IMG/VR virus record: IMGVR_UViG_3300038701_001112
Span: 1 to 31,727 of that record
Direction: 5' to 3' (one strand)
Origin: a virus
Length of the DNA stretch: 31,727 nt
Shown: positions 49-13,323 of the stretch, piece by piece
Position numbering within the stretch: the stretch's first letter is position 1
How the letters are laid out: each line of letters starts with the position of its first letter
Position numbers and translations under genes: made by a program
The notes under the pieces: generated by a model
Databases searched by the model: none
What the model was told of the DNA's origin: nothing
The model's input: only the letters and a program-made list of their open reading frames with translations

Positions 49-249
49 TTGAACGAGTACCTCTTCTTCGCCCAGCCGACTCAACCGCACCACGACACAT
101 CGCCGCACGGAAGACCTTGGGCGAAATGCCCCGGCATGATCGCGATTCACAAGCGGATCGAGAAGAACGCAACACAACGCCGCCGTCGGTACGTCGATGG
201 CGACCCAACCAAAGGTGTCCGCGCCGACGCGAAAGGAGCCACCAAATGA
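49..249 (+). CDS. hypothetical small basic protein (possibly 5'-incomplete)
   Basis: This is a 66-residue protein I do not recognise, rich in Arg and Lys in its second half. I chose the TTG start because a GAAGGGGG ribosome-binding sequence ends 7 bases upstream, and the same arrangement (run of G, TGCG, TTG) occurs before the gene at 22812. The reading frame is also open from base 1, so the true gene could begin outside the window. It overlaps the next gene by 4 bases (ATGA), the junction style used throughout this phage. Function unknown; moderate confidence that it is translated. Confidence 0.45.
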   Translation: MNEYLFFAQPTQPHHDTSPHGRPWAKCPGMIAIHKRIEKNATQRRRRYVDGDPTKGVRADAKGATK

Positions 250-809: not shown

Positions 810-1210
810 GTAGCACAAACGACGGCGGGCCTGCGTTCCCGGCAGTTGGGCAGGTCTACGGGGTAGAGGGGGATTCTCGTTGGGCAGCAGGCATGACGCT
901 GCGTGACTACTTCGCGGCGAACTGCCCAGTCTCGCGGCCTGATTGGTGGGAAGGTTCCGTGTACCCAGTGCCCGAGCCCAAGGGTCCGGAGAGCCTTGGT
1001 TACAGCCACGGTTGCACAAACGGCAAGCCCTCTTTGCCGGAGGATGACCCACGGTACAACGAGGTCAAGAAGTTTTGGGAGGATCAGAAAGTGGCGGACA
1101 AAGAGCGTCAAGCGTGGCGCGTTCGCCGAGACCTGTTCCTTGAAACAGCGTGGGCATACGAGTACGCCGACACGATGATCGCTCAGCGAGAGTCCGGAGG
1201 TGCGTCGTGA
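806..1210 (+). CDS. conserved phage hypothetical protein (GGPAFP...MTLRDYFAA type)
   Basis: The 134-residue protein carries two motifs recognisable from many phage and prophage hypothetical proteins: Gly-Gly-Pro-Ala-Phe-Pro at residues 7-12 and Met-Thr-Leu-Arg-Asp-Tyr-Phe-Ala near residues 30-37. Family members usually sit in the early/accessory region, as here, and have no established function to my knowledge. The C-terminal third is helical with a charged segment. It starts with GTG overlapping the upstream stop codon by 4 bases. Confidence 0.75.
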   Translation: MSSTNDGGPAFPAVGQVYGVEGDSRWAAGMTLRDYFAANCPVSRPDWWEGSVYPVPEPKGPESLGYSHGCTNGKPSLPEDDPRYNEVKKFWEDQKVADKERQAWRVRRDLFLETAWAYEYADTMIAQRESGGAS

Positions 1211-1719
1211 ACACCATCGACAACCGCCCGATCGTCACCCTCTCCGCAGAAGAACTCTGCAAGCAACCCCGGCGGCTCGCCAGTAACGAATGCCTCCCGC
1301 CGGTACTCGCGGCGTTCGTCCAGACCGTGCTTGAGGTCAAGGACAACTACGGCTACAAGGACACCCGCAGCGACGAGCAGAAGTGGAACTCGATCATCGA
1401 GAACCCGCACGCCTCGCTCGCCGCGTCGGTCTTCCTCTACTCCGACAAGTGTCGCGAGGACGGGTTTCTCTGGCCCTTGTTGTACGTCTACCAGGACTAC
1501 CTCGCGCCCGCGATCATCGAGGCCAAGCCAATCACGGACCGCGAGGCGTTCGCCCTGGAAGCGGTGCTGATCGAGTTTCTGAGCAAGCACCACGGATGGC
1601 GGTGGTTCGGGAGCAAGGAGGAGTGGGTGCTGGTCCACGAGGGCACAGACACGATCGTCTACGGCAGCGAGCCCGACTTCGCGTCGGCGTTGGCGTTCTC
1701 GATGGGGGGTGCCAAATGA
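1207..1719 (+). CDS. hypothetical protein
   Basis: A 170-residue, mostly helical protein with no family I can name. The GTG start at 1207 forms a GTGA overlap with the upstream stop and lies just after GGAGG, so I prefer it to upstream in-frame starts that would run into the previous gene. The C-terminal part is rich in Trp and aromatic residues (KHHGWRWFGSKEEW). It ends with a Gly-Gly-Ala-Lys tail that encodes the ribosome-binding sequence for the following gene. Confidence 0.65.
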   Translation: MNTIDNRPIVTLSAEELCKQPRRLASNECLPPVLAAFVQTVLEVKDNYGYKDTRSDEQKWNSIIENPHASLAASVFLYSDKCREDGFLWPLLYVYQDYLAPAIIEAKPITDREAFALEAVLIEFLSKHHGWRWFGSKEEWVLVHEGTDTIVYGSEPDFASALAFSMGGAK

Positions 1720-1919
1720 AGACCCCCGGCCGCACCATCACGCACTGCGACGACACACAGAAGCTCGCCAGCCGCAAGCTCGAAATGGCGATCTGGCATC
1801 AGGACCAAGCGGAAGGGCTCATGCGTGAGGCGATGGACCTGATTCGCCCGGCGGGTGACGACCCGTCCACGCTGGCCCGGATCGGGAACGGCGAGTACGC
1901 GGTGGAGGTGAAGGCGTGA
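1716..1919 (+). CDS. hypothetical small protein
   Basis: A 67-residue, probably helical protein with no recognised family. It is coupled on both sides by 4-base overlaps (ATGA with the upstream gene, GTGA with the nuclease gene downstream), so it is probably translated together with the recombination genes. Its function cannot be inferred. Confidence 0.6.
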   Translation: MKTPGRTITHCDDTQKLASRKLEMAIWHQDQAEGLMREAMDLIRPAGDDPSTLARIGNGEYAVEVKA

Positions 1920-2725
1920 ACAACACCATCCCCGATTTCATCCGTGAGCCTCACGACGCGTACAACGAGCAGCGTGCAACGCACCTGACCAGCACGGCGC
2001 TCAAGGACTACATCAAGTCTCCGGCGATCTTCAGGGCCAAGCGTGACGGCACGATCCCGCAGCGTTCATCGTCGGCGATGGACTTCGGAACCGCCGTACA
2101 CAAGTACGTCCTTGAGGGCCGCAGGGAGTTTGAGCGGTACTACGTCGTCTCCGACGGCCCGGTCAACGACAAGACCGGCGAGGCGTTCGGGGCACAGACC
2201 AAGACGCACAAGGCGTGGCGTGAGTCTGTCGCCCCGCTGGAGATCATCAGCACGGCGGACGGCGCGAGGATCGAGGCGATGCACGCGAGCGTCCACGCCC
2301 ACGACGAGGCGGCTGAGTTGCTGAGCAACGGGACCGCCGAGGGCGTGGTCCGGGCGGACCTGTTCGGGGTCGCGTCGCAGGCCCGCATCGACTGGTACCA
2401 CTTCCAGCGTGGGCTTGTGGATCTCAAGACGACCAAGGACCTTGACGGGTTCGCGGACCAGTACGACGACCTGGACTACGGCGTGCAGGCCGCGTTCTAC
2501 CAAGCGGTGTTCGAGGCCGCGAACGGGTACGCGCCCGACTTCCATTTCGTTGCGATCGAGAAGCAGGCCCCGTACCGCTGCGGCGTGTTCCGCATCGGCG
2601 GTGATGAGATGGGGTCCCTGCGTGATCGCGTCGAGCGGTTGGTCCGCGACGTTGCGGAGGCCATCGACACAGAGACATTCCCGACCGGCTACGAGCAGGT
2701 CATCACACTTGGAGGCGAATCGTGA
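1916..2725 (+). CDS. PD-(D/E)XK exonuclease, RecE/RecB-like (DUF3799-type)
   Basis: The 269-residue protein resembles the PDDEXK-like exonuclease VIII (RecE) family that pairs with phage annealing proteins. Visible motifs are Gly-Thr-Ala-Val-His (residues 58-62, the conserved N-terminal His region), Asp159 in ARIDW, Asp169-Leu-Lys171 as the catalytic (D/E)xK, and Gln191-Ala-Ala-Phe-Tyr195, the QxxxY motif of RecB-type nucleases. It would resect double-stranded ends to give 3' single strands. The ERF annealing protein and SSB lie just downstream with one 42-residue gene between, so this is the exonuclease of a complete recombination cassette. GTG start with GTGA overlap. Confidence 0.88.
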   Translation: MNNTIPDFIREPHDAYNEQRATHLTSTALKDYIKSPAIFRAKRDGTIPQRSSSAMDFGTAVHKYVLEGRREFERYYVVSDGPVNDKTGEAFGAQTKTHKAWRESVAPLEIISTADGARIEAMHASVHAHDEAAELLSNGTAEGVVRADLFGVASQARIDWYHFQRGLVDLKTTKDLDGFADQYDDLDYGVQAAFYQAVFEAANGYAPDFHFVAIEKQAPYRCGVFRIGGDEMGSLRDRVERLVRDVAEAIDTETFPTGYEQVITLGGES

Positions 2726-2850
2726 CACAGAACGAACGAGACGTATACGCCGCGCTCCGCAGGGCATCGCTCGCGCGGTCGCTGGGCATGAAGGACGCGG
2801 CCAGCGAGAACGCGAAGCGGGCGATCCGTCTGTTGGAGGATCGGAAATGA
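2722..2850 (+). CDS. hypothetical 42-residue protein between exonuclease and annealase genes
   Basis: This very short gene encodes a basic, helical peptide. It starts with GTG overlapping the exonuclease stop codon and ends in an ATGA overlap with the ERF gene, and GGAGG lies 7 bases before the start. Its placement suggests a small accessory factor of the recombination cassette or a coupling gene. I know of no homologue. Confidence 0.55.
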   Translation: MTQNERDVYAALRRASLARSLGMKDAASENAKRAIRLLEDRK

Positions 2851-3449
2851 GCGAGCAAACAGGAGTCAGAAAGGCGTTTGCCGCCGCGTGGAAGGATGTT
2901 CCCCGCATCGGATTCGACAGCAAGAACCCGAGACTCGGGAACGACTACGCCTCGTACGACAAGATCATGTCGGTGCTCCGCCCGATCCTGAACAAGCACA
3001 GCCTCATCCTCTCGCACCAGCCGTGCGCGATCGCCGGGCACGCCGCCGTGAGGACGGTTGTGATCCACGCGGAGACGGGTGAGGAACTGGACCTTGGCAC
3101 GACGGCGGTTCCCGCAGTTGCGCACAAGGGCATCAACGACGCACAGGCGTACGGGTCCTCGCAGTCGTATGCCGTCCGGTACTCGCTCCGCGCTGCGTTC
3201 GCTCTGACGACCGGAGAGGACGACGACGCGGAGGGCGCTGGCGGCGGCGGGGACCCGCGAGTGCAGGCGTACACCGCCGTGCGCAAATGGTGCGGGCTCG
3301 AAGGCGACGACCTGAACGCCGCCGCAAAGAGCATCGCGGAACTCCCCGACATCAAAGGCGACCCCATGAAGATCATCGCGTACTGCGAGCTGCACGGCTC
3401 GGAGGACTTTGTGGAACACATGAACAAGATCAAGGAGAACGCACAGTGA
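2847..3449 (+). CDS. erf: ERF-family single-strand annealing protein
   Basis: The 200-residue product matches the ERF superfamily of phage recombinases (P22 Erf type), which anneal complementary single strands. The diagnostic block is at residues 99-130: DAQAYGSSQSYAVRYSL followed by a helix and the acidic GEDDDAEG, which matches the family pattern of A-x-G-S-x-x-(S/T)-Y-A-x-R-Y-x-L before an acidic stretch. The N-terminal half contains the usual YxxYDKIM...L....L core. A Gly-rich linker at about 130-135 leads to a C-terminal region of about 65 residues, probably for partner interaction. It lies between an exonuclease and an SSB gene, as expected. Confidence 0.9.
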   Translation: MSEQTGVRKAFAAAWKDVPRIGFDSKNPRLGNDYASYDKIMSVLRPILNKHSLILSHQPCAIAGHAAVRTVVIHAETGEELDLGTTAVPAVAHKGINDAQAYGSSQSYAVRYSLRAAFALTTGEDDDAEGAGGGGDPRVQAYTAVRKWCGLEGDDLNAAAKSIAELPDIKGDPMKIIAYCELHGSEDFVEHMNKIKENAQ

Positions 3450-3871
3450 GTTACAACAAAGTCATCCTGATGGGGAACCTGACACGGGACCCCGAGACGC
3501 GGCACACTTCGAGCAACACCGCCGTGTGCAACTTCGGCCTTGCCGTCAACCGGAAGTTCAAGACCAAGGCGGGCGAGAACCAGGAGGAGGTCACGTTCGT
3601 TGACTGCGAGGCGTGGGGCCGCGTGGCCGAGGTGATCGCGCAGTACATGAGCAAGGGCAAGCCGATCCTGGTCGATGGTCGCCTCAAGCTCGACGAGTGG
3701 GAGGACAAGAACGGCGGGGGCAAGCGGTCCAAGCTCCGCGTTGTGGTCGAGTCGTTCCAGTTCGTCGGCGGCAAGGACGACGCGGGCTCGGGTGGTGGTG
3801 GCAAGAACCGTTCGCCGAGCCCCGCCAGCACCGGCGGCCATTCGATCGACCCCGACTCGATCCCCTTCTGA
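3446..3871 (+). CDS. ssb: single-stranded DNA-binding protein
   Basis: The 141-residue protein is a clear SSB. The OB fold begins with SYNKVILMGNLTRDPETRHT and continues to about residue 110. A Gly/Ser/Pro-rich linker and a C-terminal acidic tail ending DPDSIPF follow, close to the bacterial DDDIPF tail that recruits partner proteins. It would coat single strands during replication and ERF-mediated annealing. The GTG start at 3446 (GTGA overlap) gives exactly the canonical SSB N-terminus. It is the last gene before a 159-bp gap containing inverted repeats. Confidence 0.95.
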   Translation: MSYNKVILMGNLTRDPETRHTSSNTAVCNFGLAVNRKFKTKAGENQEEVTFVDCEAWGRVAEVIAQYMSKGKPILVDGRLKLDEWEDKNGGGKRSKLRVVVESFQFVGGKDDAGSGGGGKNRSPSPASTGGHSIDPDSIPF

Positions 3872-3898
3872 TTTCTCTTTCTCTCTCCGCTCACTCGC

Positions 3899-3927
3899 GC
3901 CCGACCCGGCGCGGGTGGGTTTCGGGC
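3899..3927 (+). terminator. nested inverted repeat after ssb, possible weak terminator
   Basis: GCCCGA (3899-3904) pairs with TCGGGC (3922-3927), and inside them ACCCG pairs with CGGGT (3904-3908 and 3912-3916). It lies 28 bases after the ssb stop codon. No strong T run follows, only CTTTCTT about 15 bases on, so termination would be weak. It could equally be a structured leader of the initiator gene. Confidence 0.3.
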
Positions 3928-3949
3928 AAGTCGTGAGTGCCCTTTCTTG

Positions 3950-3969
3950 CCGCGTGTGAAAGCACGCGG
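3950..3969 (+). promoter_or_regulatory. stem-loop upstream of the initiator gene
   Basis: A perfect 7-bp stem CCGCGTG/CACGCGG with loop TGAAAG lies 61 bases before the initiator start codon. There is no T run, so it is not a typical terminator. It may influence translation or act as an operator; no function is shown. Confidence 0.3.
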
Positions 3970-4030
3970 GTTGTACGGCCCTACGCCGCAGGGGTTCCAA
4001 CCACGAAGCGGCACTTTTGGAGGCTACGGA

Positions 4031-4771
4031 TTGGCCGGGGACTGGATCGCAATGTCGGTTGACCTTCACGAAACGGAAGAGGTTCTTGCGCTGGCGGACA
4101 CGCTCGGCGTTGACGACTTCTCCGTCGTAGGCAGGCTTCACCGCATGTGGTCCTGGATCGACAAGAACACCATAGACGGCGAGGGAATACGCATCTCCGA
4201 CCGCCGGATCGACAAGCTCGTCGGTCTGGACGGGTTCGCTGCGGCCCTACGCCATGTCGGGTGGCTTGATGGAAGCGATGGTGAAATAACCATCCCCAAG
4301 TTCGATCGCTGGAATGGCGGAACCGGCAAGGAGAGGGCGCGCGGTCGCAAGCGTACCGCGAAGCACAGGGGCAAGGGGCCCGATGTAACGGTCCGACCGT
4401 TACCAGAGAACAGTACAGGACAGAAGAAAACCAAAACCAAAGAGCGCGGCGTCGCCGCGTCGGGGTTCGATTGGTCGAGGGCTCCGGCTGAGATGCGGAC
4501 GCAGGCTGTGCGTGACGCGTGGGGGCGTTGGTGCGCGTACCGGCGTGAGGCGAAGCTGGGTCACTGGAAGCCGGTCACGCTGCTCGCCAATCTCCGCAAG
4601 TTCGTGGAGGCCGGGCTGGGCGGTGACGCGTGGGCGTCGTGTGTTGACGAGGCGATCAGCAACGGGTGGCGGGGTGTGTTCGTTCCGAAGGGTGGGGGGA
4701 AACAGGGCGCTCGCGGCGACGCGGGCGGCGAGTACGAGTTTGACTTTGATGACAAGGAGAAACGGGCATGA
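4031..4771 (+). CDS. phage replication initiator, O-like (DNA-binding N-terminus)
   Basis: The 246-residue protein resembles a phage family with the N-terminal pattern DWIxMxVDLHxxxEVxxLA, then VVGRLHRMWSWIDKNTIDG, a winged-helix-like region and a WLDGSDG...IPKFDRWNG block (residues 1-100). A basic, disordered linker (100-140) precedes a C-terminal domain of about 90 residues. Family members sit next to DnaC-like loaders and are regarded as lambda O-type origin-binding proteins. I chose the TTG start because GGAGG (4019-4023) lies 7 bases upstream, whereas the ATG at 4052 has no ribosome-binding sequence and would remove the conserved DWI. A 21-bp palindrome shared with the 13.7-13.9 kb region lies inside the linker-coding part (4384-4404). 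Confidence 0.72.
   Translation: MAGDWIAMSVDLHETEEVLALADTLGVDDFSVVGRLHRMWSWIDKNTIDGEGIRISDRRIDKLVGLDGFAAALRHVGWLDGSDGEITIPKFDRWNGGTGKERARGRKRTAKHRGKGPDVTVRPLPENSTGQKKTKTKERGVAASGFDWSRAPAEMRTQAVRDAWGRWCAYRREAKLGHWKPVTLLANLRKFVEAGLGGDAWASCVDEAISNGWRGVFVPKGGGKQGARGDAGGEYEFDFDDKEKRA
4384..4404 (+). repeat. 21-bp palindrome inside the initiator gene (iteron-like, copy A)
   Basis: The half-sites are TGTAACGGT and ACCGTTACC around a 3-base centre. The left and right arms match three sites in the 13.69-13.86 kb non-coding region, and the six bases after it (AGAGAA) are identical to those after copy D at 13837-13857. It is followed by an A-rich stretch. Its position in the disordered linker-coding part of an O-like gene parallels the lambda origin inside gene O. 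Confidence 0.65.
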
Positions 4772-4980
4772 CCACCTACGCCGAGATCCAGCCCCCCACG
4801 TGCGACATTTCCGGTTGCACTGGAGAGGCCGTCACCAAAGCAACCTTCCGGCACCCCGACCCGTCGTGCCGCTGGTCGGGCATGTTGTGCCTCACGCATA
4901 TGTACGAGGCGTTTGACAGGGCGAAGGGGGAGGGCGAAGTTACCTTCTCATCCACACAGCACAAGGACAACAACCAATGA
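4768..4980 (+). CDS. small putative zinc-binding protein
   Basis: A 70-residue protein with Cys12-x5-Cys18, then Cys37 and a C-x2-H pair (CLTH) near residues 43-46. Four such ligands spaced this way could bind one zinc ion, like other small treble-clef or ribbon proteins of phages. I do not recognise a named family. ATGA overlaps couple it to both the initiator gene and the next gene. Confidence 0.6.
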   Translation: MTTYAEIQPPTCDISGCTGEAVTKATFRHPDPSCRWSGMLCLTHMYEAFDRAKGEGEVTFSSTQHKDNNQ

Positions 4981-5240
4981 CCCCCACCCTCCCCGACATC
5001 CGGTCCGTGGATCGTGTGCCTGAGCCGCCCAAGAGCGGCGACCTGCGGCCGACGGCAGACACCGTGATCGGCTGCCTGTTGACGTTCGAGAAGCCTGTGC
5101 GTGTGAAGCACGCGCCCGATACCAAGCTCGCAAGCCTTGTGGTAGCGATCCACTCGGCGGCGAAGCGTCGCGGTCTTCGGGTGTCGGTGTCGGACCACGG
5201 GCACCAGGAGGTGTATGTGGAGCGGAAGGGGGTGGTGTGA
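4977..5240 (+). CDS. hypothetical protein
   Basis: An 87-residue protein with an alternating beta-alpha-beta pattern in its C-terminal half (LASLVVAIHSAAKRRG followed by LRVSVSDHGHQEVYVER). No family recognised. It is coupled by ATGA and TGATG junctions to its neighbours in the replication block. Confidence 0.6.
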   Translation: MTPTLPDIRSVDRVPEPPKSGDLRPTADTVIGCLLTFEKPVRVKHAPDTKLASLVVAIHSAAKRRGLRVSVSDHGHQEVYVERKGVV

Positions 5241-5440
5241 TGGCGTATACGTGCCGACACAAGTGTTCCGAGTGTCATTGCTACCTGTCTCGCAATGCTC
5301 TCATGTACAGCGACGCAACGTGTCCCCACTGCGGCAACTCAGCGGGCGGGTCTGTCTGCGACAGTTATAAGGAGTCGGGGCAATGGGTGAAATCAAACTG
5401 GTGGAATCCGTTCTCGTGGAAGTGGGTGCCCAAGCCATGA
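5240..5440 (+). CDS. small putative zinc-ribbon protein
   Basis: A 66-residue protein with Cys5, Cys9-x2-Cys12... and CPHCG near residues 29-33, the usual knuckle of a zinc ribbon, followed by a Trp-rich tail (QWVKSNWWNPFSWKW). I start it at the ATG at 5240, which overlaps the upstream stop codon. Its 3' end overlaps the next small gene by 58 bases in a different frame, so one of the two may be mis-called. The CPHCG motif and aromatic tail argue that this one is real. Confidence 0.6.
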   Translation: MAYTCRHKCSECHCYLSRNALMYSDATCPHCGNSAGGSVCDSYKESGQWVKSNWWNPFSWKWVPKP

Positions 5441-5481
5441 CCACGCCACGTAAAGCCGCCGCACCGGAGCCCACCAAATGA
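5383..5481 (+). CDS. hypothetical 32-residue peptide overlapping the zinc-ribbon gene out of frame
   Basis: The ATG at 5383 has a near-perfect AAGGAG (5369-5374) 8 bases upstream, the best ribosome-binding sequence in this area. The frame ends in an ATGA overlap with the DnaC-like gene. The peptide has a hydrophobic-acidic N-terminal helix and a basic Pro/Ala-rich end. An internal ATG at 5437, overlapping the previous stop codon, would give a 14-residue version. It may serve mainly to deliver ribosomes to the loader gene, which lacks a good site of its own. Confidence 0.45.
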   Translation: MGEIKLVESVLVEVGAQAMTTPRKAAAPEPTK

Positions 5482-6098
5482 CAGCAACCGCCATCAACCA
5501 GCACCGGCTCCGCATCGCACAACGCGCCGCACAGTGCGGGTTCCCCCGCCGTCACTGCGACGAACTCGGGTACGAACGCGCCGCCATCACACGCGAGCAG
5601 GAGGCCGGGTGGAAACGGCTCTGGCACGCGATCCGATCCGGCGGCACCGTCTACTTCTACGGCGGGTTCGGCGTGGGAAAGACGATCCTCGCGGCGGCGG
5701 TCGCCTTCCACTGGATCGACAAGCGGGACCGCAACCAGCTCCCGGCGAACGTGAAGGGGCTCCCCCGCTACTGGACGGCGCGCCAGCTCTTCGACGAACA
5801 GCTCGCGTGGCAGAAGGCGAACACGGACCGCGAGTCACCCGTGAAGCTCGCGGAGCGTGTGGGGTTCCTTGTGATCGACGAGCTGGGGCAATCGCGTTTC
5901 ACGGACTTCCAGAGCACGGAGATCAGCGGGATCGTTGACACGAGGTACACGAACCGCCGCCCGACGCTGTTGATTGCGAACGAGTCACCCCAGGCGATAG
6001 CGAAGCTGGGCCTGTCGCCGCTGGTCCTTGACCGGACGCGCGAGGGTGGTGCGGTGATCGACGCGAGCGGGTGGCCGAACATGAGGAGGCAGGAATGA
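5478..6098 (+). CDS. DnaC-like AAA+ ATPase, putative helicase loader
   Basis: The 206-residue protein has a Walker A motif GGFGVGKT (62-69), a Walker B motif FLVIDE (130-135), a sensor I strand TLLIANES (163-170) and an arginine-rich C-terminal end, the layout of DnaC/DnaI-type loaders. It is a little shorter than bacterial DnaC (about 245). With the O-like initiator just upstream and no helicase gene in the window, its likely role is to load the host replicative helicase at the phage origin. The start at 5478 overlaps the upstream small ORF by 4 bases. Confidence 0.85.
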   Translation: MTATAINQHRLRIAQRAAQCGFPRRHCDELGYERAAITREQEAGWKRLWHAIRSGGTVYFYGGFGVGKTILAAAVAFHWIDKRDRNQLPANVKGLPRYWTARQLFDEQLAWQKANTDRESPVKLAERVGFLVIDELGQSRFTDFQSTEISGIVDTRYTNRRPTLLIANESPQAIAKLGLSPLVLDRTREGGAVIDASGWPNMRRQE

Positions 6099-6514
6099 CA
6101 GACGCGAAGCCAACGCCGGGGCCGGTTGAGTACATCCCGTGCCAGAGTCCGAAGTTTGACCCGGACAGGATCTCGGTTCGCCGCACCGAGCAAAGGTCGG
6201 GCGACGACACGGTGCTCACCTTCATCATCGGTGGGCCGGACGCCCAGAACCTTCGCATCAACTGGGTTGGCCGAGGCAAGGATCAACTGTGTCTGATGCT
6301 CGCACCGGGCGATGCGGACCCCATCGCCGACGAACACCGCCTGACCCCGCGTCAGCTCGCGGAGCAGCGATCGTCGCTACTGGATGCGTGCAAGAACCTG
6401 CGCAGCGCGATCCACTCGTGCGACTTGTCTGAGAGAGATCGTGAAATCTTGAAGCCGTGGCTTCGCCAAGCAACCAATGCCATCGTTGCCGCCAAACCGG
6501 AGGGCCACGCATGA
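6095..6514 (+). CDS. hypothetical protein
   Basis: A 139-residue protein with no recognised family. Residues 30-75 look beta-rich (TVLTFIIGGPDAQNLRINWVG), and the C-terminal half is helical. The ATG at 6095 follows AGGAGG and overlaps the DnaC-like stop codon. It is part of the same translationally coupled replication operon. Confidence 0.6.
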   Translation: MTDAKPTPGPVEYIPCQSPKFDPDRISVRRTEQRSGDDTVLTFIIGGPDAQNLRINWVGRGKDQLCLMLAPGDADPIADEHRLTPRQLAEQRSSLLDACKNLRSAIHSCDLSERDREILKPWLRQATNAIVAAKPEGHA

Positions 6515-6741
6515 AAGCCCGCCGCATCCACATCCACACACCCGACGACCCCGCGCCGCAGCTCGCACGCGAACGCGCCATGACCGACGGCTGGCGGCTC
6601 TACCAAGACATGATGCCCCGTCCACAGAGGGACGGTACCGAGCGCACGGACGCGCTCATCGCGGGATGGGACGCCGCAGATCGCAAGGCCGCAATCTCAT
6701 TCAAAGGAGACGAGCATGGAAGCTGTGTATCTCAGGCTTGA
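6511..6741 (+). CDS. hypothetical small protein
   Basis: A 76-residue protein of unknown function with a short basic and His-rich N-terminus (KARRIHIHTP). It overlaps the next gene by 26 bases, longer than the usual 4-base junction here. Its 3' end contains the AAAGGAG site used by that gene. Confidence 0.55.
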   Translation: MKARRIHIHTPDDPAPQLARERAMTDGWRLYQDMMPRPQRDGTERTDALIAGWDAADRKAAISFKGDEHGSCVSQA

Positions 6742-7033
6742 AGATGTCCGCGATCTGGTCTGCCGGGTGTGGTCGATCAGCGTTGACGAACTCCAGTCGG
6801 ACGACCGGGGCAAGCCGATGCCCGACGCGCGCGCTGCGTTCGCTTGGTTGTCCCACATGAACACCGGGAAGAGCTGGTTGCGTATCGCGCGTGCGGCGGG
6901 GATGGTGAGCGGTTCGGCGGCGAGGGCGGCGGCGTGCCGGTACGGGGACCTTCCGGACGGCGTGCGTGGTTCGCTGGAGTCGGCGGTGTTTGAGATGAAG
7001 CGGGGCCGGTTTGGTGGGGAGGGCGCGGCATGA
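6716..7033 (+). CDS. DnaA domain IV-like DNA-binding protein (first copy)
   Basis: The 105-residue protein follows the layout of the DnaA C-terminal domain: VRDLVCRVWSISVDELQSDDRG (helix plus the L-x-S-x-x-R segment), ARAAFAWLSHM, then an S-x-x-x-I-A-x-A-x-G helix-turn-helix. The DnaA signature that reads the DnaA box (GGRDHTT) is here replaced by MVSGSAARAA, so sequence specificity, if any, differs. It lies in the replication operon and could bind the phage origin or compete with host DnaA. AAAGGAG precedes the ATG. The assignment is by pattern only. Confidence 0.55.
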   Translation: MEAVYLRLEDVRDLVCRVWSISVDELQSDDRGKPMPDARAAFAWLSHMNTGKSWLRIARAAGMVSGSAARAAACRYGDLPDGVRGSLESAVFEMKRGRFGGEGAA

Positions 7034-7623
7034 GCGCCATGCAACGCAACAAGGGCAAGCGCGGCGAGCGGATGCACGCGAAGGTACTCCGCACGCTCGG
7101 CGTCACCGACGCACGGCGCGGCGTGCAGCACGCGGGCGGGCCGGACTCGCCGGACGTGATCGGGATACCGGGCACGCACGCGGAGGTGAAGTACGAGAAC
7201 AAGCGGTTCTGGGTGTGCCACCTTGACACGCCGAACGCTGCCGTGCTTCTCAAGGTCAAGACGGATCTCGGTGACTTCATCGCGTTCCGCGCCAAGGTCG
7301 CACTGGCGGCCGCGTGGTGCATCAGAGAGTTTCCGCTCGTAGACGAAGATTCGTCGGGGGTTTACTCGTACGTCAACCAGTCATTTCCGGGCCTGCCAGT
7401 GTGCCACCTTGCGATCAGAAACCGCTCCCACAAACGCGGCATCGTCAAGGCGTACTGGGAGCAGGCCGTCAACGACTCGGGTGAGGGCGAGATCCCTTAT
7501 CTCGTTCTCCGCGAGAACGGCATGGGCGAAATGGATGAGGTCTGGATCGTGCGGGCGCGCGACGCTGCGGCGTTCGCGGGTCTGTTGGTTGAACACACAC
7601 GGAAGGAGGCCGCCGATGGCTGA
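7030..7623 (+). CDS. Hjc-like Holliday junction resolvase / PD-(D/E)XK nuclease
   Basis: The N-terminal 55 residues are typical of phage and archaeal Hjc-type resolvases: NKGKRGER with Glu13, ARRGVQHAGGPDSPDVIG with Asp42, and EVK with Glu52 and Lys54. The expected helix (YxxQAVxDxG) and final strand (PYLVLRE...VWIV) appear only at residues 141-175, so about 80 residues separate the EVK strand from the rest of the nuclease core. Usual phage relatives place that helix within about 15 residues. At 197 residues it is longer than common members. It would resolve branched recombination or replication intermediates before packaging. Confidence 0.75.
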   Translation: MSAMQRNKGKRGERMHAKVLRTLGVTDARRGVQHAGGPDSPDVIGIPGTHAEVKYENKRFWVCHLDTPNAAVLLKVKTDLGDFIAFRAKVALAAAWCIREFPLVDEDSSGVYSYVNQSFPGLPVCHLAIRNRSHKRGIVKAYWEQAVNDSGEGEIPYLVLRENGMGEMDEVWIVRARDAAAFAGLLVEHTRKEAADG

Positions 7624-8164
7624 CGAACACGGGACGGATCGGGTGGAGTACGCAGTCAAGACTTTGCGAAACGCTCCTGATTCTAGAGAGGCGTGGGACG
7701 AGGCGATCAAGGCGAAGAACCTGAAGATGTACGCCGACCTCCTCGAATCCATCGCCGCCGAGCGTGACACCCTCCGCGCCGAGGTCGAGCGGTTGCGGGG
7801 GGTGATGGACTGGCTCGCATCAGACGACACAGGGCTGTCGAGCGAGTGGATGGCGCATGTGATCTTCGGCGTGCCTGTGTCTGACCGATTCGGTGGCGGA
7901 TCATTCCCATACGACACGGGCGACTTCGGCAGGTGCTACCGATTTCTCCAGAAGTTCCCGCAAGCCCGAGAGAGCCTGCACAAGCTCCGGGCTTCGGGTC
8001 CGGTGTGGTCGGGGATGGTCGATCGCTGGGATGAGTTGGAGCGGCTGTACGACTCTGCCGAGCCGACCAGTAACGGAGACCTCAACCGCCTGTTGTGCAA
8101 GATCCGCGAAGACCGTGGGCTTGTCGAGCAGCGGGGCGAGACGCAGGGGGTGAGCGATGGGTGA
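7616..8164 (+). CDS. conserved phage hypothetical protein with N-terminal coiled coil
   Basis: Residues 35-65 form a likely coiled coil (AAERDTLRAEVERLRG). Residues 72-170 match a widespread phage domain of unknown function with the pattern SSEWMA...G......YPYDTGDFGRCYRFL...P..R..L.........W..MVDRWDELERLY. This block is common in early regions of phages and prophages of Gram-negative bacteria. The ATG start overlaps the resolvase gene by 8 bases and is preceded by GGAGG. Confidence 0.7.
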   Translation: MADEHGTDRVEYAVKTLRNAPDSREAWDEAIKAKNLKMYADLLESIAAERDTLRAEVERLRGVMDWLASDDTGLSSEWMAHVIFGVPVSDRFGGGSFPYDTGDFGRCYRFLQKFPQARESLHKLRASGPVWSGMVDRWDELERLYDSAEPTSNGDLNRLLCKIREDRGLVEQRGETQGVSDG

Positions 8165-8354
8165 GTACATGCACGATTTCACGGTCAAGACCATACGGAA
8201 GCGGAGCGACATCACGGAGATTTCCCGTCTCCGCGAGGCCATGCACGCCGCCGTCCTCAAGATCGAGGACGGGGCCGCGAGTCACGCGAGGGGTGTGCTG
8301 GTGGCGGCGCTGGCGGAGTCGGAGGATGGCGAACAGGAGGTGTGTGATGAATAA
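8157..8354 (+). CDS. hypothetical small protein
   Basis: A 65-residue, helical protein of unknown function. It overlaps both neighbours by 8 bases and ends in AGGAGG, which serves as the ribosome-binding sequence for the next gene. I recognise no family. Confidence 0.6.
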   Translation: MGEYMHDFTVKTIRKRSDITEISRLREAMHAAVLKIEDGAASHARGVLVAALAESEDGEQEVCDE

Positions 8355-8838
8355 CGAAGACACCCACGAAGCAGCTTCGCAGAAACTCGCTGATGATCTT
8401 GTTCGAGGCGGTGAGTGCGAGGAGTCTAGTAGTGTGTGGTTCAGGGCGGCAAGAATCTTGGGCGATCGCATCAAGAAAATACAGTTTGACGACGAAAAGA
8501 TTACAAGACAGAAGGGAGAAATAACTCGTCTCCACGACAAGATCGCCAAGCTCAAAGCCGAGCTCGCGGAGACGCGGGGGGTGGCGGCTCTTGTTTGGCG
8601 TGACGGATCGGGCAAACCAATCGGGTTTCGGACCACGAATCACTACATGATCGGGCCGGGCGGCGACGTTTGCGGCGTAGGTGTCTTTGCGATGGGCGAA
8701 GATCCGGACGGCGATCACGAATCGCCCCCACTGTTCGAGGTCCGAGACGCGACCGGCAACGAGTGGTGTGTACACCCCGACGATTTATTCTCCACCCTTG
8801 AAGCCGCCCAAGCCGCCGCGTCTGGGGGTGGGGCGTGA
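8347..8838 (+). CDS. hypothetical protein with coiled-coil and beta-rich C-terminal domain
   Basis: The 163-residue protein has a Lys/Glu-rich coiled coil at about residues 40-78, then a beta-rich segment (GKPIGFRTTNHYMIGPGGDVCGVGVFAMG) and a short C-terminal helix. The first part of the gene is noticeably less GC-rich than its neighbours, which could mean recent acquisition. Function unknown. Confidence 0.6.
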   Translation: MNNEDTHEAASQKLADDLVRGGECEESSSVWFRAARILGDRIKKIQFDDEKITRQKGEITRLHDKIAKLKAELAETRGVAALVWRDGSGKPIGFRTTNHYMIGPGGDVCGVGVFAMGEDPDGDHESPPLFEVRDATGNEWCVHPDDLFSTLEAAQAAASGGGA

Positions 8839-8918
8839 GTTGGGCACCCTACATCTGGCCGAAAGACGAAACCAACACCCCGCCCCGCGACGGCGGGGAG
8901 GACGAAAGGAGCGGGTGA
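8835..8918 (+). CDS. hypothetical 27-residue peptide coupled to the methyltransferase gene
   Basis: A GTG overlapping the upstream stop (GTGA) opens a 27-codon frame whose stop overlaps the next start by one base (TGATG). The peptide is Trp/Tyr-rich at the N-terminus and acidic at the C-terminus. Its end contains GAAAGGAG, the ribosome-binding sequence for the methyltransferase. The tight fit to both neighbours argues that it is translated. Confidence 0.45.
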   Translation: MSWAPYIWPKDETNTPPRDGGEDERSG

Positions 8919-9460
8919 TGGAAGAACCTATGAAGTTTGCCTATGCCGACCCGCCGTATCTCGGGCAGGGACAGCGAAAGTACGACCGCCCCGAGTGGGA
9001 CACCATCGAGCGGCACGCAGAGCTCGTCGAGATGTTGTGCAGCGAGTACCCGGACGGCTGGGCGATGTCAATGGGATCGAACAATCTGCGTGACATCCTT
9101 CCGCTCTGTCCCGATGACTGTCGTGTCGGGGCGTGGGGCAAGCCGTTTTGCTCATTCAAGCCCAACGTGAAGCCCGCGTATGCGTGGGAGGCCGTGGTGT
9201 TTCGCGGGGGGCGTCCGAGTAAGCGAACGGACGAGACGTACCACGACTTCCACACAGAGAACATCACGATGCGTAAGGGGTTCCAAGGAGCGAAGCCGCC
9301 GGGGTTTGCTCAGTGGATCGTCCGACTCTTGAACGCAAAGGTGGAGAAGGGCGACACGGTGACGGACTTGTTTCATGGCGCGGGCGGGATGCTCGGTGTG
9401 TGGCGGGTGGACATCGAACAGGTGCAGGACCAACTCACAGCAGGAGGAAAGAACGCATGA
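8918..9460 (+). CDS. phage DNA methyltransferase, DPPY type
   Basis: The 180-residue protein has the catalytic motif IV DPPY at residues 11-14 near the N-terminus and the SAM-binding motif I (TVTDLFHGAGGM, about 147-158) near the C-terminus, a permuted order as in beta-class amino-methyltransferases. The middle (CPDDCRVGAWGKPFCSFKP and AYAWEAVVFRGGRP) matches a family found in many phages. DPPY implies N6-adenine or N4-cytosine modification. It is short and has no obvious target recognition domain, and no cognate restriction enzyme is nearby, so it probably protects phage DNA from host restriction. Confidence 0.82.
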   Translation: MEEPMKFAYADPPYLGQGQRKYDRPEWDTIERHAELVEMLCSEYPDGWAMSMGSNNLRDILPLCPDDCRVGAWGKPFCSFKPNVKPAYAWEAVVFRGGRPSKRTDETYHDFHTENITMRKGFQGAKPPGFAQWIVRLLNAKVEKGDTVTDLFHGAGGMLGVWRVDIEQVQDQLTAGGKNA

Positions 9461-9861
9461 CCCCACCCCGCGAACTCATCACGAAGACCCTGCAAGCCCT
9501 CGACGCGCTGCGTGCGAAGGACGGCGGGTGTCCAGGGTTGGAGCCGAAACAGCGTCTCGTGATCGAGAAGTACCCAGATTCCACGAACTACTCGCTCGCC
9601 CTCGCCCATCTCAACTCGCGGCTCGGGGAGGTGATGGTGTGGTTGACCGCTCAGGGCGAGTGGTACTTCGAGTGCTCTTGGTGGGAGGGGAAAGCGGACC
9701 TCGGGTTTTGCCACCCGAACAGCGATCCCGACCGCGACCCGACCGATCCGCTTGCGAGGTACAAGGGAAAGACAGCCCCCAGAGTCACCGACGAACTCAC
9801 CGCCAAGTGCGAACTCGTCTGTGCGGCGGCGGGGGTTGTGGCGGGGGAGGGGACATGCTGA
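9457..9861 (+). CDS. hypothetical protein
   Basis: A 134-residue protein of unknown family. The centre (GEVMVWLTAQGEWYFECSWWEGKADLGFCHP) is Trp/Phe-rich and probably a beta-sheet. AGGAGG precedes the ATG, which overlaps the methyltransferase stop codon by 4 bases. Confidence 0.6.
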   Translation: MTPPRELITKTLQALDALRAKDGGCPGLEPKQRLVIEKYPDSTNYSLALAHLNSRLGEVMVWLTAQGEWYFECSWWEGKADLGFCHPNSDPDRDPTDPLARYKGKTAPRVTDELTAKCELVCAAAGVVAGEGTC

Positions 9862-10091
9862 CACGAACCGAGTCAGGCCAAGTACCTCCCGGCAGGGTCC
9901 GCAGGGTCGCGTACATCTTCGAGGCCCGTTGTGCGTCGTGCGACCACTCCGAGACTCTGACCTCGACGGGTGCAGGGGCGTGTCCCAAGACTCTGAGAGA
10001 TCGCGGATGGACGACAAGCCGGGGGCTGTGGAAGTGCCCCGGATGCTCTGGAACGGAAGCGGAAACCCCAACACTGAGGATCGCAACATGA
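9855..10091 (+). CDS. small putative zinc-ribbon protein
   Basis: A 78-residue protein with C-x2-C (CASC, about 26-29) followed by a single Cys in GACPKTLRDRGW and then C-x2-C (CPGC, about 61-64): two zinc knuckles separated by about 32 residues. The layout fits a zinc ribbon that could bind nucleic acid or protein. It overlaps both neighbours. Confidence 0.6.
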   Translation: MLTRTESGQVPPGRVRRVAYIFEARCASCDHSETLTSTGAGACPKTLRDRGWTTSRGLWKCPGCSGTEAETPTLRIAT

Positions 10092-10510
10092 CCCCCACCG
10101 ACCCCCTCAACCTCCCCCAGATCCTCGCCGACCTGGAGACTGTGAAGGCGGCGGGGTGCCCGCATTCGGTCGTGCCCGATACATCTAAGGCCATGGCAAG
10201 AGCGATCGGTTTTCGAGACTGGGGCACTGCGCGACTCTACTACCGCAGAGCAAGAGCCGACCTCCAAGCGACCATCACGGAGATCATGGGGTGGTTCTGC
10301 CGAGAGCGTCAGGTCTACATCAAGGTCGAAGTGTTCCACGACGGGTCGTTTGGTTTCGTCATGGAATCAACGACAGAGCATGTGATCGCGGAGAGCGGGG
10401 AAGAAGCGTTCGCCACCCCCCTCCCCGCCCACGCCGCGATCCTGCGGGCGATCGCGGAGACGCTTGGTGCGTCGCCCATCGCGGAGGCGGTGAAAGGAGA
10501 CAGCAAGTGA
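10088..10510 (+). CDS. hypothetical protein
   Basis: A 140-residue, mainly alpha-helical protein with a central beta hairpin (QVYIKVEVFHDGSFGFVME). No family recognised. Start and stop are shared with its neighbours through ATGA and GTGA overlaps. Confidence 0.6.
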   Translation: MTPTDPLNLPQILADLETVKAAGCPHSVVPDTSKAMARAIGFRDWGTARLYYRRARADLQATITEIMGWFCRERQVYIKVEVFHDGSFGFVMESTTEHVIAESGEEAFATPLPAHAAILRAIAETLGASPIAEAVKGDSK

Positions 10511-10719
10511 AGCAGGAAGACATCAGCGCGGAGGCTTGGTTGAAGGCGTGGCGAAAGGAGTTGCGGATAGCGAACCGCATCGCCAAGTTTGACGGCGACG
10601 ACAAGGCGTCCCGCGTGCTTCACCGTCTCATGTCGTCGGTGAACGACGCACAAAGAATGATCGACAATCGCCGTGAACAACAGCAACTCAACAAGGACCG
10701 GAACGCTCCGGAAGACTGA
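10507..10719 (+). CDS. hypothetical helical protein, 3' end apparently rebuilt by an insertion
   Basis: A 70-residue, charged, fully helical protein. It ends QQLNKDRNAPED and then stops, and the 19 bases encoding its last section (10683-10701) are repeated exactly 123 bases later (10806-10824). Continuing from the downstream copy in the matching frame gives a different end (QLNKDRDTPG...) that stops at 10875 in an ATGA overlap with the next gene, the normal junction of this phage. The ancestral gene was therefore probably about 20 residues longer at its end, and the insertion supplied a new stop codon. Confidence 0.65.
   Translation: MKQEDISAEAWLKAWRKELRIANRIAKFDGDDKASRVLHRLMSSVNDAQRMIDNRREQQQLNKDRNAPED
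10683..10701 (+). repeat. 19-bp direct repeat, left copy
   Basis: GCAACTCAACAAGGACCGG here is identical to bases 10806-10824. The two copies lie 123 bases apart (41 codons, so in frame) and bracket the tRNA-like element. The left copy lies inside the coding region of the 70-residue protein. Confidence 0.9.
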
Positions 10720-10724
10720 CATCT

Positions 10725-10803
10725 GGGCCGGTAGCGCAACTGGATAGCGCACCAAGCGGGTAAGGCCGTGAGGAGGGTGTGGGTTCGAGTCCCACCCGGC
10801 CCA
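10725..10803 (+). tRNA. tRNA-like element with no canonical anticodon arm
   Basis: A full 7-bp acceptor stem (GGGCCGG, 10725-10731, with CCGGCCC, 10796-10802), a D arm with stem GCGC/GCGC around AACTGGATA, and a perfect T arm (GTGGG, loop TTCGAGT, CCCAC) are present, as in a real tRNA. Between the D and T arms there are 27 bases (10752-10778) instead of the usual 21-22. No 5-bp stem with a 7-base loop can be formed there; the best I find is CGG/CCG around GTAAGG with mismatches. I therefore assign no amino acid. CCA is not encoded. It could be a decayed tRNA, a tRNA with an unusual arm, or a tRNA mimic. Confidence 0.55.
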
Positions 10804-10875
10804 TTGCAACTCAACAAGGACCGGGACACCCCTGGTCGCAGCGACCGCCGTGGGGCGGGGAAGGATGGTGGATGA
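10804..10875 (+). pseudogene. detached original 3' end of the upstream 70-residue gene
   Basis: Read from 10804, the frame begins with the same Gln-Leu-Asn-Lys-Asp-Arg encoded at the end of the upstream gene and continues for 17 more codons to a TGA at 10873-10875. That stop overlaps the next gene's ATG (10872) by the standard 4 bases. It has no start signal of its own. I infer that it is the stranded end of the gene at 10507, separated by insertion of the tRNA-like element. Confidence 0.55.
10806..10824 (+). repeat. 19-bp direct repeat, right copy
   Basis: Identical to bases 10683-10701. It begins 3 bases after the end of the tRNA-like element. Confidence 0.9.
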
Positions 10876-11159
10876 TGGGCTGGGCAAACTGTGGAACTGA
10901 CTCAAAGGGTCGTTCGATCGGGTACGCGCACAGCGGGATATGCGATCACCCCGGATGCACGACACCAATCAACCGGGGCGTTGACAATGCGTGCGCTGGG
11001 ATGCACGGGACTGATGAGGGTGGATGCGAAGGGTACTTCTGTGGCCAACACAGGGACGATGTTCCCGACTACGAACAGGAACTCCGAAGCCCGTCCATGT
11101 GCAAAGCGTGCGCCGAGAAGTGGATGGAGACACACGAATGGAAGGATGAGGAGGAATGA
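10872..11159 (+). CDS. Cys-rich putative zinc-binding protein
   Basis: A 95-residue protein with many potential zinc ligands: CDHPGC near residues 24-29, further Cys and His in the middle (CAGMH, then CEGYFCGQH) and C-x2-C (CKAC) near residue 78. Two zinc sites are plausible. The Trp-Ala-Asn-Cys-Gly N-terminus and IGYAH segment are distinctive, but I cannot name a family. Two ATGs occur in a row; I take the first because it overlaps the upstream stop codon. Confidence 0.65.
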   Translation: MMGWANCGTDSKGRSIGYAHSGICDHPGCTTPINRGVDNACAGMHGTDEGGCEGYFCGQHRDDVPDYEQELRSPSMCKACAEKWMETHEWKDEEE

Positions 11160-11557
11160 TGACCCCAACTAACCCCACCCTGCTCGCCCTCTGCCGCCGC
11201 GCCGAGAAACTCGGGGGGCCGGAGGTGCCGGGGCTGACCGTTGAAATCGAGGTTTACGAGAACGGATTCCATGAGTACGTCACCCACGAGGTGTCGCTGC
11301 CCACCGAAGAACGCGCCGCCGTCCTGCGGGACCATGCGGCGGGGGATGTGCGTGCGTGGGCGTGGAAGGACAAGGGCTACAAGATCGTGCTGGACGAACG
11401 AGAGCCCGGCGAGTACGACTGGTCCGTGGAGTGTGCCGGTGGTGCTGTGGTCGGAAGCCGCACACCCGAGAGGCTGCCGTGGCCCGCCGCCATCCTCGCG
11501 TCCCTCTCCGCCGCCCTCGACCTGATCGACGAGGAGGGTGATGATGGGGACGATTGA
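11156..11557 (+). CDS. hypothetical protein
   Basis: A 133-residue acidic protein of unknown function with a helical N-terminus, a beta-rich centre and an acidic end (EEGDDGDD). GAGGAG precedes two consecutive ATG codons; the first overlaps the upstream stop codon. The 3' end contains GAGGAGG, used by the next gene. Confidence 0.6.
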   Translation: MMTPTNPTLLALCRRAEKLGGPEVPGLTVEIEVYENGFHEYVTHEVSLPTEERAAVLRDHAAGDVRAWAWKDKGYKIVLDEREPGEYDWSVECAGGAVVGSRTPERLPWPAAILASLSAALDLIDEEGDDGDD

Positions 11558-11741
11558 CATTGACGACGCGAAGGGAAGGGCGGTCTTCGTTCGGAGCAAG
11601 GTTGAAGGCCTATCAGGTGCCTTGGTGGTCCGCAATGGCAGGGAGACTCACGCGGTATACAAGATGTCCCTGACTTGCCGGGACTACGAGAACGAACAAC
11701 GGCTCGCGCGAGCAGCCGCATACGCGAAGGGAGCACCATGA
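11544..11741 (+). CDS. hypothetical small protein
   Basis: A 65-residue protein. A GTG and two ATGs follow one another (11538, 11541, 11544). I chose the last because GAGGAGG (11531-11537) then sits 6 bases upstream. Unknown family, with a beta-strand-rich first half and a helical end. Confidence 0.5.
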   Translation: MGTIDIDDAKGRAVFVRSKVEGLSGALVVRNGRETHAVYKMSLTCRDYENEQRLARAAAYAKGAP

Positions 11742-12088
11742 CTGACCGACCGACCGACGAACTCACGGCGAGGGTCGTGGCGGAGTGGATGGGGTGGGAG
11801 AAGGCGTACAAGACTTGGGACTCGGACGTCTTCAAGAGCGACCGAGAGAGGCATGTACCCTTCGCTGACAACGACCATATCCAGAGATGCCCAGATCCCC
11901 GCGACGACACCAACGCCGCCCTGCGGCTGCTGGGGTGGGTCCGAACGGGGTATGCCTCGCAGACCCAGCTTGCGGAAGACGGGAGACACTGGCTCGTCTA
12001 CACCGAGAGAGGAACAAAGGCCATCCCCCTCTCCGGCGAACCCTTCCGCTACTCAGTCGTCGCGCTCGCGGGGGAGGTGTGCGGGTGA
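11738..12088 (+). CDS. Phage ABA sandwich domain-like protein
   Basis: The 116-residue protein follows the pattern of the phage ABA sandwich family: a start DELTARVVAEWMGW, a variable middle, the segment FADNDHIQRCPDPRDDTNAALRLLGWV, and a strand with aromatic residues. Known members are small early proteins of unknown role. The match is by motif recognition only. It begins with an ATGA overlap. Confidence 0.55.
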   Translation: MTDRPTDELTARVVAEWMGWEKAYKTWDSDVFKSDRERHVPFADNDHIQRCPDPRDDTNAALRLLGWVRTGYASQTQLAEDGRHWLVYTERGTKAIPLSGEPFRYSVVALAGEVCG

Positions 12089-12348
12089 GGAAATCAGCCA
12101 TCATCGTTGCTGCTTCAGCGTTACTTCTTTCGGGGTGTGACCTGCGCCCCGCTGTGTCCTCTGTTCGTGTCGAAGTCAAGATTGTATCTGCAAAGGGGCC
12201 GGACGAGGTTTCAGCGTGGGCCGACCCCGCGAGCGGAGTGACTGTCATAGAACGAATGGATACCCGAGAGCGGCGTCGAATCCCTGGGGTGTGGGGGCGA
12301 GTTGGTGACACCTACATAGCAGAATGGACAGAGGAGTACACCCCATGA
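12085..12348 (+). CDS. small predicted lipoprotein in the early region
   Basis: The 87-residue protein begins MRKSAIIVAASALLLSGC: two basic residues, a hydrophobic stretch and a lipobox LLSGC with Cys18 as the lipidation site. The mature part is about 70 residues and beta-rich. It lies among early genes and not in a lysis cassette. Small phage lipoproteins in such positions (for example T5 Llp) block receptors and exclude superinfecting phages, so a similar role is possible but not shown. GTG start with GTGA overlap. Confidence 0.72.
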   Translation: MRKSAIIVAASALLLSGCDLRPAVSSVRVEVKIVSAKGPDEVSAWADPASGVTVIERMDTRERRRIPGVWGRVGDTYIAEWTEEYTP

Positions 12349-12776
12349 CCAACCCCACCGCCCAACTCACCGAACTCCGCGAGATCCGCGACGCGATGGT
12401 TGCGAAGGGGATGCCGGATTGGTGGCCGAAATACCTGACGTACCACCAGCCTTCGATCAACCCCGAGGAGGACTTGTGGGTGTACAGAGGCGAGCGAGTT
12501 GGTGACACCTGTGCGCTCCGCCCCGCCGACGCCCTCACGCTCGTCGTGGACGCGGGGGAGAGGGTGTTGCTGAGCATGGGGGTGGGGATCGAGTACACGC
12601 CCGCAGCAAAGGATTCTGAGGCGAGGATCGAGCACGGTGTCTCGTATCGCGCGATCTACCGGGGCGGGGCAATCGGCAGAAGGAACCTCGCGTGCTTGAT
12701 AAAGGGCGATCGCGCCGAGTACGCAAGGGTTGGTCTGGCCGGTGCTCTCCGCGCCGTCATGGAGGCGGAGGAGTGA
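12345..12776 (+). CDS. hypothetical protein
   Basis: A 143-residue protein of unknown function. The N-terminus (LREIRDAMVAKGMPDWWPKYLTYHQPS) and the helical C-terminus frame a beta-rich middle. It is coupled by ATGA to the lipoprotein gene. No family recognised. Confidence 0.6.
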   Translation: MTNPTAQLTELREIRDAMVAKGMPDWWPKYLTYHQPSINPEEDLWVYRGERVGDTCALRPADALTLVVDAGERVLLSMGVGIEYTPAAKDSEARIEHGVSYRAIYRGGAIGRRNLACLIKGDRAEYARVGLAGALRAVMEAEE

Positions 12777-12778
12777 AG

Positions 12779-13003
12779 ATGCCAGTGCTGAAGGATGGGT
12801 GGTGCATGTTCGTCAGAGGCGTGCATGGCGATTGGGTTTGGCGTAGGGGGGCGTGGTGGCACAGGCACACACATCGGCGGGTCACGCGGGGGCATCGCAT
12901 CGCGGAACTTGAGAGAGTCAAGCGGGCGCGTATCAGGGAGATCCTGCGTCACAACAGAGACACGGCGAGCGAGTGCATAACGATCGCCGGGGGCGGATCA
13001 TGA
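12779..13003 (+). CDS. hypothetical small basic protein
   Basis: A 74-residue protein, very basic and Trp-rich (WVWRRGAWWHRHTHRRVTRGH), possibly nucleic-acid binding. Two starts are possible: ATG at 12779 with GGAGG 7 bases upstream, or GTG at 12773 overlapping the upstream stop. I prefer the ATG. The Arg-rich helix from residue 42 supports a DNA or RNA contact, but this is inference. Confidence 0.5.
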   Translation: MPVLKDGWCMFVRGVHGDWVWRRGAWWHRHTHRRVTRGHRIAELERVKRARIREILRHNRDTASECITIAGGGS

Positions 13004-13323
13004 AACCCATCCCCCCGTCCTTCATCGTCGAGACCGTCATCGAAGAACTCGGGGCCGACCCCGACGAGGTGCTGTCCGATCGGCGGTCGCCCTTCGCCGT
13101 CTTCACACGGCGCGCCATCGCCTACCTGTGCCGCGAACTCTCCGACGCGAGCTTCCCCGAGATCATGGTGGCGATGCAGAAGGACCGGGGCGGTCACTCG
13201 GCGGCGGCCGGGTACGACCGGGCGATGCGGGAGCTGATCGCGCTCGACCCCACCGCGAAGGCCCGCGTCGAATCGCTGGCCTTGATCGTGCGTGGGAGGT
13301 GGGGGATGGAGGTGGCGGCGTGA
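13000..13323 (+). CDS. DnaA domain IV-like DNA-binding protein (second copy)
   Basis: The 107-residue protein aligns well by eye with the C-terminal DNA-binding domain of DnaA. IVETVIEELGADPDEVLSDRRS matches the DnaA helix followed by L-x-S-x-R-R, RRAIAYLCREL matches the R-x-(I/M)-A-x-x-L-x-(K/R)-E-L helix, and SFPEIMVAMQKDRGGHSAAAG matches S-x-P-E-I-(G)...GGRDHTTV. His is kept in the signature; the Arg-Asp order is altered. It lacks the DnaA ATPase domains. It lies just before a perfect DnaA box (13587-13595), so it may bind the phage origin or modulate host DnaA there. Confidence 0.72.
   Translation: MKPIPPSFIVETVIEELGADPDEVLSDRRSPFAVFTRRAIAYLCRELSDASFPEIMVAMQKDRGGHSAAAGYDRAMRELIALDPTAKARVESLALIVRGRWGMEVAA

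What the first reader, a model, noticed from the sequence alone, without database searches (positions are those of the whole stretch)
10683..10875. tRNA-like element inserted in a gene, with a duplicated 19-bp sequence restoring the gene end
The 19 bases before the tRNA-like element are repeated exactly after it, 123 bases (41 codons) on. The right copy continues in frame to a stop codon that makes the standard ATGA overlap with the next gene, so it looks like the original gene end. The inserted unit therefore carried a substitute end for the disrupted gene, which keeps the upstream protein intact, as in some intron, homing-element or prophage insertions.
Basis: partly seen in the sequence, partly recalled or inferred. 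Interest (0 to 1): 0.7.

Follow-up and report, generated by a model that had tools for sequence, protein, structure and literature searches.

The report
Odd phage tRNA between duplicated gene-ends
In an uncultured phage genome, a tRNA-shaped RNA with a misshapen decoding arm sits between two copies of the end of a small gene, which looks like an insertion scar, but no relative close enough to prove it could be found.

Summary
GCAACTCAACAAGGACCGG occurs exactly at 10683-10701 and 10806-10824, 123 bp apart, on either side of a tRNA-like element (10725-10803). The right copy, read in the frame of the upstream gene (X, 10507-10719), runs open to a TGA overlapping the next gene's start (ATGA, 10872-10875). 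The repeat is the longest exact direct repeat in the window. Four-base stop/start overlaps are the rule in this operon (20 of 32 neighbouring pairs), which favours the right copy as the original gene end, though chance alone gives this in 23% of simulations.

The left end replaces a 16-residue tail (DTPGRSDRRGAGKDGG) by NAPED, so the protein is not kept intact. The proposed test, a tRNA-less relative, could not be run: no credible relative of X was found, and the best terminase relatives are 48-49% identical.

The element scores as a tRNA (49.8 bits) with intact acceptor, D and T arms, but its anticodon arm has 22 nt instead of 17 and a 6-nt loop, so it probably cannot decode. Best reading: a short-homology insertion of a tRNA gene that stranded the old gene end. 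Mechanism unproven.

The parts
10507..10719 (+). Gene X, 70 aa, GTG start overlapping the previous stop (GTGA); present end ...QLNKDRNAPED*
   Evidence: ORF and junction; coding score +29.7 in frame against -39.4 and -58.5 in the other two frames; SD-like AAAGGAG upstream read; no homologue found
10683..10701 (+). Left copy of the 19-bp direct repeat (in-frame QLNKDR of X)
10702..10719 (+). Present end of X after the repeat: N A P E D stop, 5 nt before the tRNA-like element
10725..10803 (+). tRNA-like element; acceptor 7 bp, D arm 4 bp, T arm 5 bp with TTCGAGT loop; anticodon arm 22 nt; no CCA encoded
   Evidence: Rfam RF00005 49.8 bits, ARAGORN, fold -38.4 kcal/mol, z -2.35
10752..10773 (+). 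Abnormal anticodon arm: CC/GG, 2x2 internal loop, GCGG/CCGU, 6-nt loop GUAAGG
   Evidence: 5 nt longer than six of seven hand-picked tRNAs aligned to it
10806..10824 (+). Right copy of the 19-bp repeat, two bases after the tRNA-like element
10825..10875 (+). Stranded, probably original end of X: DTPGRSDRRGAGKDGG*, ending in the ATGA overlap; also holds the SD-like GAAGGA of the next gene
   Evidence: coding score -1.1, undecided (in-frame control mean 10.0, sd 7.3; off-frame -11.3, sd 7.2)
10872..11159 (+). Next gene, 95 aa, phrog_9476 (unknown function)

Best explanation
A tRNA gene was inserted near the 3' end of the small early gene X by recombination over a short homology, giving two copies of the X stretch coding QLNKDR. 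Shown: the repeat, the tRNA fold, the two reading-frame ends. Inferred: the right copy is the old end of X, which once overlapped the next gene by ATGA and is now untranslated leader of that gene; X now ends five codons into inserted DNA. Inferred: the tRNA-like RNA lies in the operon transcript, can be cut out by RNase P and RNase Z because its acceptor, D and T arms are intact, and so separates the X message from the next message, which has its own SD-like site. Inferred: with a 22-nt anticodon arm and a 6-nt loop it does not decode; it is either a decaying tRNA or is kept only as a processing signal or decoy.
For: Exact 19-bp repeat, longest in the window, flanking the element; right copy in frame with X and ending in ATGA; 4-base overlaps in 20 of 32 neighbouring gene pairs from 246 to 13323, against a 152-bp gap after X; homologues fix the start of the next gene; tRNA score, fold and abnormal arm.
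Against: No tRNA-less relative or homologue of X exists in the data searched. Chance alone gives the ATGA agreement in 23% of simulations. The right tail has a neutral coding score. The changes cluster after base 19, which a simple duplication followed by random mutation does not predict. No recombinase was found near by.
Confidence: 0.5

Rival explanations
1. The left end (NAPED*) is the native end of X, followed by an old tRNA gene; the right copy is a secondary partial duplication of the X end, or a remnant of a second allele joined by recombination between related phages. The ATGA agreement is chance.
For: The left end is the one in use; the ATGA agreement has a chance probability of 0.23; the right tail has no clear coding signal; similarity fades gradually after base 19, as between two alleles.
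Against: It leaves X as one of the few genes of the early operon without an overlap to its neighbour and needs a separate event for the right copy.
Confidence: 0.27
2. The 19 bp are a recombination core (attL/attR-like) or a target-site duplication made by an enzyme, so the unit of about 104 bp is or was mobile.
For: Exact copies with a sharp left edge, the right copy starting two bases after the mature tRNA end; the e14 prophage in icd gives a precedent for an element that supplies a gene end (PMC6379469, passages read).
Against: No integrase, transposase or reverse transcriptase among PHROGs hits of the proteins scanned (not every ORF was scanned); no second copy in viral contigs by tRNA 5' half or by repeat pattern; weak similarity goes on beyond the 19 bp.
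Confidence: 0.12
3. Chance: an ordinary intergenic tRNA gene with an unrelated 19-bp repeat.
For: A repeat of 19 or more occurred anywhere in 6 of 100 Markov sequences.
Against: Within 300 bp it occurred in 1 of 100, and here it also flanks the only Rfam tRNA of the window, in frame, with a matching gene end.
Confidence: 0.06

Closest known systems
e14 prophage in E. coli icd (gene-end-restoring integration; PMC6379469, passages read)
   Same: An insertion at the 3' end of a gene, homologous sequence at both ends, the old gene end left on the far side.
   Different: e14 has an integrase and supplies a near-identical protein end; here the unit is about 104 bp with no enzyme and the new end is unlike the old.
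Phage-borne tRNA genes (for example PMC10264068, abstract start in a search listing plus four passages; PMC11555353, abstract start in a search listing)
   Same: A lone tRNA-type gene in an early phage operon, with changes confined to the anticodon arm.
   Different: Phage tRNAs described there carry point changes in the anticodon loop and still have an anticodon; here the arm is 5 nt longer and no anticodon is assigned.
tRNA-dependent lysogeny (PMC10865867, abstract and outline read)
   Same: A phage that carries its own tRNA gene.
   Different: It needs an integrase and a tRNA of a definite isotype; neither was found here.

Membership tests
tRNA (RF00005) | Covariance-model score above the gathering score | tested here: met
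   49.8 against 29 bits, model 1-71
tRNA (RF00005) | Acceptor, D and T arms | tested here: met
   Fold and ARAGORN drawing
tRNA (RF00005) | 5-bp anticodon stem with 7-nt loop and an assignable anticodon | tested here: not met
   22-nt arm, 6-nt loop; ARAGORN gives '???'. So: tRNA-like, not filed as a decoding tRNA
Gene-end-restoring integrative element (e14/icd type) | Homologous sequence at both ends of the insert | tested here: met
   19 bp exact, 27 nt at 89%
Gene-end-restoring integrative element (e14/icd type) | The element codes a like C-terminus | tested here: not met
   NAPED against DTPGRSDRRGAGKDGG
Gene-end-restoring integrative element (e14/icd type) | Integrase | tested here: not met
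   None in the PHROGs hits of the four scans; no gene inside the insert
Gene-end-restoring integrative element (e14/icd type) | Empty site in a relative | tested here: inconclusive
   No relative of X found
Intron or homing element | Group I/II intron fold or homing endonuclease | tested here: not met
   Rfam at E up to 1 gives only the tRNA and one sub-threshold CRISPR-repeat match; no homing endonuclease among PHROGs hits
tRNA-dependent lysogeny | Integrase with attB in a host tRNA gene, phage tRNA of the same isotype | tested here: inconclusive
   Host unknown, isotype not assignable, window is a fragment without integrase hit

The most novel reading that the evidence does not exclude
The unit is a tRNA-derived mobile insertion with a 19-bp target-site duplication: a precursor tRNA (22-nt leader, tRNA, UU tail) copied into the phage genome at a staggered break, a bacterial-virus counterpart of a SINE-like event, so that phages can gain tRNA genes by retro-insertion.
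Probability: 0.04. Interest if true: 0.85.

Novelty: new variant of a known kind. Interest (0 to 1): 0.35.

Why it matters
How phages acquire lone tRNA genes is poorly understood. A site that still shows both the old and the new end of the interrupted gene is a rare visible scar of such an event and, if a relative without it turns up, would show the joint and so the mechanism. A tRNA-like RNA that keeps every feature needed for processing while its decoding arm is changed would also bear on non-decoding roles of phage tRNAs.

Tried and rejected
Homologues of X: viral contigs by peptide patterns (16 stretches, none confirmed), phages by tblastn (9 records, best E 0.6), plasmids (none), 12 related records (0 of 12), 31 records (1 of 31, G036/L108, 13.9 bits, E 0.003 for one genome; rejected as weak after a look at the frames of L108), 87 loci by tblastn and phmmer (best E 2.3). 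Neighbouring genes as bait: no relatives. Terminase as bait: 10 loci, 1 in genome contigs, 80 of 152 confirmed loci kept with an alignment. The locus with the most window genes in order, L037, shares the replication genes, a DnaA-C-like gene and the terminase genes, but has no detected X and no tRNA.

tRNAs in relatives: RF00005 in the 11 virus records of the first set, 0 of 11 (the 12th record, a bacterial MAG, has its own 53); in 27 further records 2 of 27 at E up to 0.001, one over the cut-off. The one strong case (L053) has no flanking direct repeat, so the scar is not general.

Translational bypassing from one repeat copy to the other was considered: the frame is kept (123 = 41 codons) but two stops (TGA, TAG) lie between and the tRNA would be cut out of the message; no evidence for it. 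Promoter and terminator scans gave nothing that stands out. Fold of the whole 193 nt is no better than shuffles (z 0.27). A paper search for pseudo-tRNAs in phages held nothing on the point, nor did searches (listings only).

Full report
Setting. The window is a 31,727-base virus record with a DnaC-like loader, SSB, Erf-like annealing protein, exonuclease, terminase, portal and major head protein; all genes around the finding lie on the + strand. Its host is unknown. No close relative is in the collections searched: the best terminase matches are 48-49% identical, 44% with the single-sequence query, 31% in one bacterial MAG.

The observation. The 19-mer at 10683-10701 recurs exactly at 10806-10824, and an 18-mer of it within 3 mismatches occurs only there. 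It is the longest exact direct repeat in the window; among 100 order-5 Markov sequences a repeat this long occurred within 300 bp once and anywhere six times. Weak similarity continues for about 10 further bases, with the first three differences all transitions (alignment; P 0.008 to 0.03 for 10 bases, 0.02 to 0.08 for 12).

The gene ends. X (10507-10719) ends ...QLNKDRNAPED*. The right copy reads QLNKDRDTPGRSDRRGAGKDGG* and its TGA overlaps the ATG at 10872. Phage homologues of the next gene align from MGWANC on, so that start is right. Of 33 + strand genes called between 49 and 13323, 20 of 32 neighbouring pairs overlap by exactly four bases, and the pair X/next has a 152-bp gap, one of four over 100 bp, two of which come from genes that my caller missed (ORFs ending at 10091 and 12348). 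This favours the right end as original. It is not strong: with the bases shuffled and a random frame the same agreement comes in 23%, and the tail has a neutral coding score, -1.1, between in-frame (10.0, sd 7.3) and off-frame (-11.3, sd 7.2) controls.

The element. Rfam gives RF00005 at 49.8 bits over the full model. Acceptor (7 bp), D (4 bp) and T (5 bp) arms are intact; the anticodon arm has 22 nt (CC, AA, GCGG, loop GUAAGG, CCGU, GA, GG) and ARAGORN assigns no anticodon. In an alignment with seven hand-picked similar tRNAs out of the 231 records that matched, the window has five more bases in that arm than six of them; the seventh is a long-variable-arm tRNA. [quoted passage not shown] that this element does not decode is my inference.

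Relatives. X has no credible homologue in viral contigs, phages, plasmids, 12 and 31 related records or 87 loci. The one flagged match (G036, 13.9 bits) I regard as chance. The predicted empty-site pattern and the 5' half of the tRNA have 0 hits in viral contigs. L037 shares the replication genes and terminase with the window but no X, no next gene and no tRNA, so the finding lies in a variable stretch of small genes.

Mechanism. I favour insertion by short-homology recombination (0.5), with a native left end and secondary duplication as the chief rival (0.27), an enzyme-made duplication at 0.12 and chance at 0.06. Whatever the origin, X now ends 5 nt before the tRNA-like RNA, so processing of that RNA would leave the X reading frame whole and give the next gene a new leader with an SD-like GAAGGA six bases before ATG 10872 (read; processing inferred).

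Known analogues. e14 in icd supplies a gene end and leaves the old one on the far side (PMC6379469, passages). It works alike in outcome, but this is no member: no integrase and no like C-terminus. Phage tRNAs with altered anticodon loops are known (PMC10264068, passages), as is tRNA-dependent lysogeny (PMC10865867, abstract); the defining features of the latter were not found. My paper searches showed no report of a lone tRNA between duplicated gene ends, in an open-licence library only.

Noticed in passing
window 12297-12313 and 12494-12510: A second close direct repeat, 17 bp exact, 197 bp apart, both copies in frame coding RVGDT, one in the end of the gene that stops at 12348 and one in the next gene. 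No tRNA between; similarity stops sharply after the 17 bp.
   Followed up: partly
window 20278-20373: ARAGORN calls a tRNA-Tyr inside the portal gene; Rfam finds nothing there at E up to 1, so probably false.
   Followed up: partly
L053 1588-1675: A related phage record carries a tRNA with a long variable arm but anticodon TGG called Pro (57.1 bits); no direct repeats around it.
   Followed up: partly
L096 1796-1868 and L101 10248-10320: Near-identical odd 'tRNA-Met' calls by ARAGORN downstream of the terminase in two records; not checked.
   Followed up: no
window 9855-11159: Small early genes around X (9855, 10088, 10507) have no PHROGs family at E up to 0.01, unlike the next gene, phrog_9476, which is shared with Vibrio, Caulobacter and other phages.
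   Followed up: partly
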